Shown in pieces: positions 52,519 through 54,236 of a DNA stretch of 64,000 nucleotides. Source of the DNA: Rhodococcus opacus (GTDB taxonomy: Bacteria > Actinomycetota > Actinomycetes > Mycobacteriales > Mycobacteriaceae); assembly GCF_012396235.1 (NCBI RefSeq), contig NZ_JAAXPA010000014.1, positions 124,001 to 188,000 of the forward strand. The letters run 5' to 3'. Positions within the stretch are counted from its first letter, which is position 1. Each line of letters begins with the position of its first letter. The position numbers were made by a program, and so were the translations under genes. Below the pieces are notes generated by a model that made no database searches, was not told where the DNA came from, and was given only the letters and a program-made list of their open reading frames with translations.

Positions 52519-52971
52519 CTAGACGATCCCCCGCTTCAGGCGCCGGCGCTCACGCTCCGACAGGCCACCCCAGATACCGAACCGCTCGTCATTGGCCAGT
52601 GCGTAGTCGAGGCACTCGTCCCGCACCTCGCAGCCCAGGCAGATGCGCTTCGCTTCCCTGGTGGAGCCTCCCTTTTCAGGGAAGAAGGCCTCCGGGTCGG
52701 TCTGCGCACAGAGCGCGCGTTCCTGCCACTGGTCCTCGATGGTCTCGAACAGTTCGTCGAAACCGGTCACCAGACTCAACGCCGGGCGGGGGCCCGTCGT
52801 CTCGACTTCCTGTGCGACGAGTTCCGGCACAGGAATTTCTTTCACACTGCCTTCTTGCACACAGACTTCTTGAACACAGACGCCGTCCGCTGCGCCTGCT
52901 TCGGAATTGGTCTGCGGTTCGTCGCTTACTGTGCTCCAGCGAGTCTCCGACTCGATCTGCTCATTGGGCAT
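52519..52971 (-). CDS. whiB2: WhiB2 (WhmD) iron-sulfur transcription factor with long N-terminus
   Basis: Protein of 150 residues. The WhiB core (about 80-150) holds Cys in RALCAQTDP, CxxC in RICLGCEVRDEC with the last Cys five residues on, the GIWGGLSERER turn and a basic tail. WhiB2 is essential for septation in mycobacteria. The start ATG 52969-52971 has a strong GAGGAGG site about 7 nt upstream, so the 75-residue extension is real; mycobacterial WhiB2 is about 90 residues. The extension includes five-residue repeats with two extra Cys. A LexA-type palindrome lies 80 bp upstream. Confidence 0.93.
   Translation of the reverse strand: MPNEQIESETRWSTVSDEPQTNSEAGAADGVCVQEVCVQEGSVKEIPVPELVAQEVETTGPRPALSLVTGFDELFETIEDQWQERALCAQTDPEAFFPEKGGSTREAKRICLGCEVRDECLDYALANDERFGIWGGLSERERRRLKRGIV
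52837..52881 (-). repeat. Three 15-bp tandem repeats within whiB2
   Basis: On the minus strand three units of 15 bp follow each other: GTCTGTGTTCAAGAA, GTCTGTGTGCAAGAA, GGCAGTGTGAAAGAA. They encode VCVQE, VCVQE and GSVKE, and two further degenerate five-residue units (IPVPE, LVAQE) follow. The first two differ at one base. Confidence 0.85.
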
Positions 52972-53050
52972 CGTTCCGCCTCCTCACCTGTGATAGCGCA
53001 GAAAATTTCGATCGATCATGTACCCCGAACCGAACACCCCTGCCACCCGT

Positions 53051-53066
53051 TCGAACAACCGTTCGA
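53051..53066. promoter_or_regulatory. LexA (SOS)-type operator between whiB2 and fbiA
   Basis: TCGAAC-AACC-GTTCGA, a perfect palindrome of the TCGAAC-N4-GTTCGA form of the actinobacterial LexA box (consensus core CGAAC-N4-GTTCG). It lies 80 bp upstream of the whiB2 start and 180 bp upstream of fbiA. Possible whiB2 -10 boxes (for example TACATG at 53018-53023) are downstream of it, so LexA could block the -35 region. The rest of the 275-nt region shows no gene. Confidence 0.7.
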
Positions 53067-53234
53067 ATTGATCCCCGCTGCAAGTGATTCCACGCCCACA
53101 ACGTCGGAATGACATATTTGTGATTAGACACGCCCAGCGTGTCGCGGTCAAGCTAACCGTCGAAAGTCGATTACTATTTCGCGCTCTCGATTCGCTTCGG
53201 GGAAGCAGCTCACAGGAGGCGGTCGGCCACCGCC

Positions 53235-53240
53235 TAGGCT
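53235..53240 (+). promoter_or_regulatory. -10 box, putative leaderless promoter of fbiA
   Basis: TAGGCT, 6 nt before GTG 53247, with no ribosome-binding site between. Confidence 0.5.
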
Positions 53241-53246
53241 TGCACC

Positions 53247-54236
53247 GTGAACGTGACTGTATTGGTTGGCGGGGTGGGCGGGGCCCGGTTCCTGCAAGGT
53301 GTGCGGAGGTTGCTCGGGGCCGATGCGCCCGGTCGTGCGGGCGCCGATTCCGGCCATTCCATCACCGCTGTCGTCAATGTCGGCGACGACGTGTGGATGC
53401 ACGGACTACGGATCTGCCCGGACCTGGACACCTGCATGTACACCCTCGGCGACGGCATCGACACCGAGCGTGGGTGGGGGCATGCCGGTGAAACCTGGAA
53501 CGCCAAGGCCGAACTCGCCGCCTATGGTGCGAAACCGGATTGGTTCGGGCTCGGTGACCGGGACATCGCCACGCACCTGATCCGCACGCAGATGCTGCGG
53601 ACGGGGTATCCGTTGTCGGCGGTGACCGAGGCGTTGTGCAACCGGTGGCAGCCGGGTGTGACGCTGCTGCCGGTGACCGACGATCGTAGTGAAACTCACG
53701 TCGTGATCACCGATCCCGAGGACGGGGAGCAGCGGGCGATCCACTTCCAGGAGTGGTGGGTGCGGTACCGCGCCCAGGTCCCGACGCACAGCTTCGCGCA
53801 CATCGGCGCCGAGCAGGCCGCCCCGGCGCCGGGGGTGCTCGAGGCGATCGAGACGGCCGACATCGTGCTGCTGGCACCGTCGAATCCCGTGGTCAGTGTG
53901 GGGGCGATCCTGGCGGTGCCGGGGATCCGCGGTGCGTTGCGCACCACCGCGGCGAAGGTGGTCGGGATCTCGCCGATCGTCGGCGGAAAACCGTTGCGCG
54001 GCATGGCCGACGAATGCCTCGACGTGATCGGCGTCGACACCTCCGCGGAGGCGATCGGCCGCTGGTACGGGGCCCGGAGCGGGACCGGGATCCTCGACGG
54101 CTGGCTTGTCCACGACACCGACACCGCCGAGGTTCCCGGGGTGGAGGTGGCCCGGGTGCCGCTGATCATGTCCGACCCCGACGCCACCGCCGCGATGGTG
54201 CGGGCGGCGCTGGACGTGGCGGGGGTGGCGCTGTGA
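53247..54236 (+). CDS. fbiA: FbiA/CofD: phospholactate-type transferase of F420 synthesis
   Basis: Protein of 329 residues of the CofD family: N-terminal [39 protein letters not shown] (metal/nucleotide region), [14 protein letters not shown], and a C-terminal [17 protein letters not shown]. FbiA joins the 3-carbon moiety (from enolpyruvyl-diphospho-5'-guanosine in mycobacteria) to the deazaflavin Fo, giving dehydro-F420-0. The GTG start overlaps a leaderless-type promoter. The stop TGA overlaps the fbiB GTG (GTGA). Confidence 0.95.

What the first reader, a model, noticed from the sequence alone, without database searches (positions are those of the whole stretch)
53051..53066. LexA/SOS-type operator upstream of whiB2
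TCGAAC-AACC-GTTCGA is a perfect palindrome in the form recognised by actinobacterial LexA. It lies 80 bp before whiB2, whose mycobacterial homologue is needed for septation. A direct SOS link to WhiB2 would offer a route from DNA damage to division control, and I know of no report of it in Rhodococcus or Mycobacterium.
Basis: partly seen in the sequence, partly recalled or inferred. Interest (0 to 1): 0.72.

Follow-up and report, generated by a model that had tools for sequence, protein, structure and literature searches.

The report
Conserved SOS box in whiB2 leader
A DNA-damage (SOS) repressor site really lies beside a cell-division gene, is kept in many related bacteria at one fixed distance after the point where that gene's transcription starts, and was already listed for the tuberculosis bacterium in 2002, but what it does is unsettled.

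Summary
The palindrome is real and perfect (53051-53066), one of five perfect SOS boxes in the 8.1 Mb genome. A LexA matrix built only from lexA and dnaE2 operators scores it 23.4 bits, the training median, 9 bits above the next site in the window. The link is not unreported: Davis 2002 listed an SOS box between whiB2 and fbiA in M. tuberculosis (seen as cited in PMC4181829). New here are position and conservation. By homology the box lies in the transcribed leader, at +50 of the whiB2 promoter that carries the McdR operator at its start (PMC9040748). A box with <=2 mismatches starts at +46..+50 in 83 of 137 family genomes (18 of 30 genera) and in 0 of 30 outside the family. It is not an RNA hairpin. 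I favour LexA as a roadblock to early elongation (about 0.5), but published expression runs against that sign: whiB2 falls after DNA damage in M. tuberculosis. LexA binding and the sign of regulation in Rhodococcus are untested.

The parts
53051..53066 (.). SOS box / LexA-type operator TCGAAC-N4-GTTCGA, +50 to +65 of the whiB2 transcript
   Evidence: position
53146..53151 (-). inferred -35 element TTGACC of whiB2 promoter P1
   Evidence: conserved in relatives. The generic promoter scan did not report P1 (its rule requires A at position 2 of the -10)
53137..53144 (-). CGACACGC in the P1 spacer; matches the published WhiB2 motif cGACACGc
   Evidence: motif from PMC9040748. Weakly conserved: CGACACGC in 19 of 137, GACAC in 39 of 137 family genomes
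53123..53128 (-). inferred -10 element TCTAAT of P1
53108..53125 (.). AATCACAAATATGTCATT, exact match to the published McdR operator AATnACAnnnnTGTnATT, over the start site
   Evidence: PMC9040748; exact in 124 of 137 family and 23 of 30 outside genomes
52972..53115 (-). inferred 144-nt whiB2 leader, +1 at 53115 (an ATG triplet stands at +1)
   Evidence: inferred by homology; codon at +1 GTG 81, ATG 54, ACG 2 of 137
52979..52985 (-). Shine-Dalgarno sequence GAGGAGG of whiB2
52519..52971 (-). whiB2 (WhiB protein, 150 aa)
53247..54236 (+). fbiA/cofD (2-phospho-L-lactate transferase), divergent neighbour

Best explanation
The palindrome is a LexA operator that belongs to whiB2 and sits in its transcribed leader, at a fixed +46 to +50 from the start of the McdR-controlled promoter. 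LexA bound there most likely acts as a promoter-proximal roadblock: RNA polymerase that starts at P1 meets the LexA dimer after roughly 30 nt, stalls, and holds up whiB2 transcription until LexA is cleaved. whiB2 would so combine McdR repression at the start site with an SOS gate just downstream. Shown here: sequence, score, position relative to the conserved promoter, conservation. Shown by others: the mycobacterial start site and McdR binding there. Inferred: that P1 is the start site in this genome; LexA binding in Rhodococcus (about 0.85); that the box acts on whiB2 (about 0.8); the roadblock and its repressive sign (about 0.5).
For: Matrix score at the training median and 9 bits above the next site in the window. 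Box <=2 mismatches at +46..+50 in 83 of 137 family genomes, 18 of 30 genera, against 0-8 genomes in 16 other 5-nt windows and at most 2 for 179 permuted half-sites. Not conditioned on position: of 90 genomes with P1 and a box anywhere in 1.2 kb, 80 have it at +46..+50; 73 of 83 matrix hits >=10 bits in 162,345 positions fall there. Box to start codon varies 49-214 nt. In G254 and G265 the box lies at +63, so strict helical phase is not needed. LexA stalls polymerase in vitro and a short promoter-roadblock spacing prevents help by trailing polymerases (PMC4132739; PMC10310618).
Against: A released roadblock should raise whiB2, but whiB2 falls: 0.32-fold with moxifloxacin, among the most reduced genes with nargenicin, anti-correlated with LexA targets; PMC7911356 takes this as doubt that LexA binds there. 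LexA appears positive at S. mobaraensis whiB. 54 of 137 family genomes lack the box at +46..+50. No binding or start-site data for Rhodococcus.
Confidence: 0.5

Rival explanations
1. LexA bound at the box supports whiB2 expression, so its cleavage lowers WhiB2 and stops septation (as PMC4181829 proposed for M. tuberculosis).
For: whiB2 anti-correlates with LexA targets and falls after damage; S. mobaraensis LexA binds the whiB promoter region in EMSA and whiB falls in a lexA deletion. It fits the logic of a division checkpoint.
Against: A site at +46..+65 is an unusual place for an activator. In S. venezuelae whiB also falls after mitomycin C, while 0 of 21 sampled loci outside the family (mostly Streptomyces) have a box with <=2 mismatches, so the fall need not come from the box; McdR can give it too.
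Confidence: 0.25
2. LexA binds, but with little effect on whiB2 output; the fall after damage comes from McdR, growth arrest or other routes.
For: PMC7911356 found no induction of whiB2; Davis 2002 did not list whiB2 as likely LexA-regulated (as told in PMC4181829).
Against: Long conservation at one position.
Confidence: 0.1
3. Another DNA-binding protein that likes the same palindrome is the real reader of the box.
For: Most family copies are imperfect (72 of 83 have 1-2 mismatches); in all 12 genomes of g2, and all 16 of g64 and g72, position 5 is T or C. PMC8151990 speculates that ArsR proteins bind SOS-box-like motifs. A second LexA-like gene exists in this genome.
Against: The same variant TCGA[TC]C-N4-GTTCGA stands upstream of lexA itself in 22 of 30 loci; in this genome the box is perfect.
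Confidence: 0.1
4. The box serves the divergent gene fbiA, is an RNA hairpin of the leader, or is chance.
For: It lies in the shared intergenic region and would read as a 6-pair stem in RNA.
Against: Position is tied to P1 of whiB2; fbiA shows no significant change in LexA-inducing conditions in M. tuberculosis. Pair 5-12 is unpaired in 34 of 83, the leader folds no better than shuffles (z -0.06), no Rfam match. Permuted half-sites give at most 2 of 137.
Confidence: 0.03

Closest known systems
SOS box between whiB2 and fbiA of M. tuberculosis (Davis 2002, as cited in PMC4181829)
   Same: Same palindrome type in the same divergent intergenic region.
   Different: Original not held, so its exact letters and place were not seen. 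Position behind the start site and conservation across 18 of 30 genera are added here.
McdR/ResR-controlled whiB2 promoter of mycobacteria (PMC9040748, PMC10336103)
   Same: The operator AATnACAnnnnTGTnATT over the start site is exact in the window and in 124 of 137 family genomes.
   Different: The term LexA does not occur in the main text of either paper; a LexA input at +46..+50 is not part of that loop.
LexA at Streptomyces whiB (PMC11157053; PMC9380542)
   Same: LexA binding to a whiB promoter region and a fall of whiB without LexA, or after mitomycin C.
   Different: No box with <=2 mismatches within about 1 kb upstream in 0 of 21 sampled loci L062, L063, L065, L067-L084.
Transcriptional roadblocks (LacI; LexA at uvrA), PMC4132739 and PMC10310618
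   Same: A DNA-bound repressor placed downstream of a promoter.
   Different: No roadblock has been measured at whiB2; the parallel rests on position alone.

Membership tests
LexA operator (SOS box) | TCGAAC-N4-GTTCGA palindrome | tested here: met
   perfect
LexA operator (SOS box) | Scores like operators of known LexA-controlled genes of the same family | tested here: met
   23.41 bits, training median 23.37; training sites were chosen at <=1 mismatch to the consensus
LexA operator (SOS box) | LexA present in the genome | tested here: met
   LexA_DNA_bind and Peptidase_S24 in L290, with boxes upstream
LexA operator (SOS box) | Conserved beside the orthologous gene | tested here: met
   83 of 137 family genomes, 18 of 30 genera; absent at that place in 54 of 137 and in 30 of 30 outside
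LexA operator (SOS box) | Bound by LexA | not testable with these tools
   needs EMSA or ChIP
SOS-induced gene | mRNA rises after DNA damage, depending on RecA and LexA | not testable with these tools
   published data for the M. tuberculosis orthologue show a fall; none found for Rhodococcus (search)
McdR-controlled promoter | AATnACAnnnnTGTnATT around the start site | tested here: met
   exact at 53108-53125; start site inferred by homology
McdR-controlled promoter | mcdR gene present in this genome | not tested
   no search for mcdR was made
Transcriptional roadblock | Stalled short transcripts; read-through rises when the protein leaves | not testable with these tools
   needs in vivo or in vitro transcription
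RNA hairpin element | Paired positions covary | tested here: not met
   pair 5-12 unpaired in 34 of 83; changes in the box are one-sided

The most novel reading that the evidence does not exclude
whiB2 is a multi-input checkpoint promoter in much of the family: WhiB2 feedback in the spacer (motif in this genome), McdR over the start, and a LexA gate at +46..+65 that stops polymerase within the first 50 nt. SOS opens the gate for a short WhiB2 pulse, WhiB2 raises McdR, and McdR then shuts whiB2 and raises imuAB and dnaE2, so that one leader couples DNA damage, error-prone repair and septation arrest.
Probability: 0.2. Interest if true: 0.75.

Novelty: new variant of a known kind. Interest (0 to 1): 0.5.

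Why it matters
How DNA damage reaches division control in mycobacteria and their relatives is not settled. The whiB2 box was listed long ago and set aside because whiB2 is not induced. Its fixed place behind the start site and its conservation in 18 of 30 genera argue that it does something, and give a cheap, clear test (box scrambled or not, LexA cleavable or not) of what and in which direction.

Tried and rejected
RNA hairpin: rejected on uncompensated changes, folding and Rfam. Coding conservation: the frame opened at +1 ends after 1 to 281 codons and crosses the box in different frames (read by eye), so the box is not kept as peptide. Second promoter with the box over its -35: an ATAGT-like stretch follows the box in some Mycobacterium-like genomes but not in the window; the generic scan found no promoter at all in 52900-53300, and missed P1 too. 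fbiA as target: see rivals. Second LexA-like gene: no box with <=2 mismatches in the 6 kb around it. A single-gene dnaE2 tree needs 7 changes of box state (shuffled mean 9.1; 47 of 500 shuffles as low) and does not settle gain against loss; in it G166 was labelled 'nobox' although its upstream region is cut off by the contig end, so that row is wrong.

Limits of the counts. The +46..+50 spread and the identities are for genomes picked because they have a box with <=2 mismatches, which inflates box identity; the counts are not picked by position. Start codons are by a Shine-Dalgarno rule. Rows dropped: G161 and G232 (no hit at 1e-33); G166 (98 nt of upstream only); G123 (family hit, never fetched); 5 of 142 family and 18 of 48 outside genomes without P1 at <=4 mismatches, among them a Corynebacterium-like G226 with a one-mismatch box elsewhere upstream. 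The 48 outside genomes are those fetched, of 130. lexA and dnaE2 regions: 30 loci each, of 59 and 55 genomes with hits. Own-genome scores: 21 of 93 sites. L356-L358 were fetched and not studied.

Full report
What is there. TCGAACAACCGTTCGA lies at 53051-53066. It is the only perfect match in the window and one of five in the genome, where the reversed control pattern has none. Of the other four, one stands 14 nt before a DUF222/HNH frame and one before a DnaE-type polymerase with PHP domain, which I take to be dnaE2; lexA has boxes with one mismatch. The gene 79 nt away on the minus strand is a WhiB protein, divergent from fbiA. The closest named relative in the scan is Rhodococcus wratislaviensis, 99% identical in this protein.

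Is it a LexA operator? I built a weight matrix from boxes upstream of lexA and dnaE2 in 30 + 30 family loci (83 sites, 46 distinct, chosen at <=1 mismatch to the consensus, so biased to it, but holding no whiB2 site). The window box scores 23.41 bits against a training median of 23.37; the next site in the window scores 14.5. Among 21 own-genome sites that I scored, of 93, it ranks sixth. LexA binding itself was not tested.

Where it lies. Aligning relatives on the box showed a far more conserved block about 50 nt upstream: TTGACC, 17-18 nt, TCTAAT, 7 nt, [AG]TGTCATT. Its 21-nt core is present with <=4 mismatches in 137 of 142 family genomes and 30 of 48 outside, and a more diverged form stands before whiB of the Streptomyces loci. 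Published work explains it. In mycobacteria McdR represses whiB2 through AATnACAnnnnTGTnATT around the mapped start site, and WhiB2 activates mcdR through cGACACGc (PMC9040748: outline, abstract, passages, sections 6 and 10). In Streptomyces BldO covers the start and -10 of a whiB promoter at TGxAATTxCA (PMC5485038, passages). The window has the McdR motif at 53108-53125 and CGACACGC at 53137-53144; the first is exact in 124 of 137 family genomes, the second in only 19. With +1 at 53115, inferred by this homology, the SOS box is +50 to +65, inside the leader. The generic promoter scan did not find P1, because TCTAAT lacks the A that its rule demands.

Conservation. With <=2 mismatches the box starts at +46..+50 in 83 of 137 family genomes (66 with <=1, 11 perfect), in 18 of 30 genera, and in 0 of 30 outside the family. 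Sixteen other 5-nt windows gave 0 to 8 genomes, and 179 permuted half-sites at most 2. Without conditioning on position: of 90 family genomes with P1 and a box with <=2 mismatches anywhere in 1.2 kb, 80 have it at +46..+50, and 73 of 83 matrix hits >=10 bits among 162,345 positions fall there. In contrast the distance from box to start codon runs from 49 to 214 nt. Between representatives of 5 and 9 genera the box is 84-85% identical (inflated, since they were picked for having it), the stretch before it 38-42%, after it 26-28%, and its own N4 30-32%. So the palindrome is kept as DNA and tied to the promoter, not to the start codon. In the named scan 54 of 59 loci (L005-L061, L064, L066) had a match with <=2 mismatches upstream, not filtered for position, against 0 of the other 21. 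Among genera without it at +46..+50 are g58, g59 and g74, which equal contig lengths point to as Corynebacterium, Dietzia and Hoyosella. Whether these lost it or never had it is open.

Variants. All 12 genomes of g2, and all 16 of g64 and g72, have T or C at position 5, as do the 18 named loci labelled Mycobacterium, Mycolicibacterium, Mycobacteroides or Mycobacteriaceae. This does not exclude LexA: TCGA[TC]C-N4-GTTCGA stands upstream of lexA in 22 of 30 loci. Pair 5-12 is broken in 34 of 83 without compensation, so the box is not an RNA hairpin. In G254 and G265 the box lies at +63, after what reads as a tandem duplication of about 16 nt (by eye), so a strict helical phase is not needed.

What it does. 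A LexA dimer at +46..+65 would stop polymerase after roughly 30 nt. In the LacI study (PMC4132739, passages) a short promoter-roadblock spacing prevents the help of trailing polymerases, and LexA is named among proteins that stall polymerase in vitro; a review names LexA among natural roadblocks (PMC10310618, passages). Against this stands expression: whiB2 is 0.32-fold after moxifloxacin (PMC7911356, passages and section 14), among the most reduced genes with nargenicin (PMC8922275, passages) and anti-correlated with LexA targets (PMC4181829, passages and section 27). PMC4181829 concluded that LexA induces whiB2, and LexA appears positive at S. mobaraensis whiB (PMC11157053, passages and section 19). 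Yet whiB also falls after mitomycin C in S. venezuelae (PMC9380542, passages and section 7), and the sampled Streptomyces-type loci lack the box; McdR, whose overexpression represses whiB2 and raises imuAB and dnaE2, can give the fall too. These data do not isolate the effect of the box. I put the roadblock at about one half and a positive role at one quarter.

Prior art. 'No report' is wrong for Mycobacterium (Davis 2002 through PMC4181829). Davis 2002 and Smollett 2012 are not held. I found no statement of the +46..+50 position, or of conservation beyond mycobacteria, in the listings or in the passages read; the library holds open-licence papers only, and supplements could not be read. A 2026 preprint lists whiB2-fbiA among regions enriched for within-host variants in tuberculosis and notes its ResR site (PMC13308281, passages). 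Seen as passages only: PMC8151990, PMC8607333, PMC10336103, PMC6683498, PMC8870461 (ciprofloxacin raised lexA about 13.5-fold, whmD is not named among the raised genes).

Verdict. A real, long-kept LexA-type operator at a site already listed in one species, in a place that I did not find described. It is interesting mainly because it turns an old loose end into a direct test.

Noticed in passing
L355 2632-3375 (own genome C2:121215-121871): A second LexA-like gene, 57% identical to LexA; 14 of 61 family genomes have two LexA-like hits. No box with <=2 mismatches within the 6 kb held around it.
   Followed up: partly
G264, G241, G067, G213, G228 (genus g4), +37 and +49 of the whiB2 leader: Two overlapping box-like palindromes share a half-site (GCGAAC-N4-GTTCGA-AC-N4-GTTCGC), read. 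One of these contigs has the length of the Rhodococcoides corynebacterioides record.
   Followed up: no
window 53113-53115: A start codon stands exactly at the inferred +1 in 135 of 137 family genomes (GTG 81, ATG 54), but the frame's length is not conserved: a possible leaderless short ORF upstream of whiB2.
   Followed up: partly
L002 1501-1516 and L004 1501-1516 (own genome C12 and C20): Two further perfect SOS boxes with high matrix scores (26.4 and 25.3 bits); one near frames without a Pfam match, one inside a frame with a GNAT acetyltransferase match.
   Followed up: no
PMC13308281, whiB2-fbiA intergenic region of M. tuberculosis: Listed in a 2026 preprint as enriched for unfixed within-host variants (4 participants, p 7.9e-6; passages); whether any hits the SOS box was not seen.
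   Followed up: no
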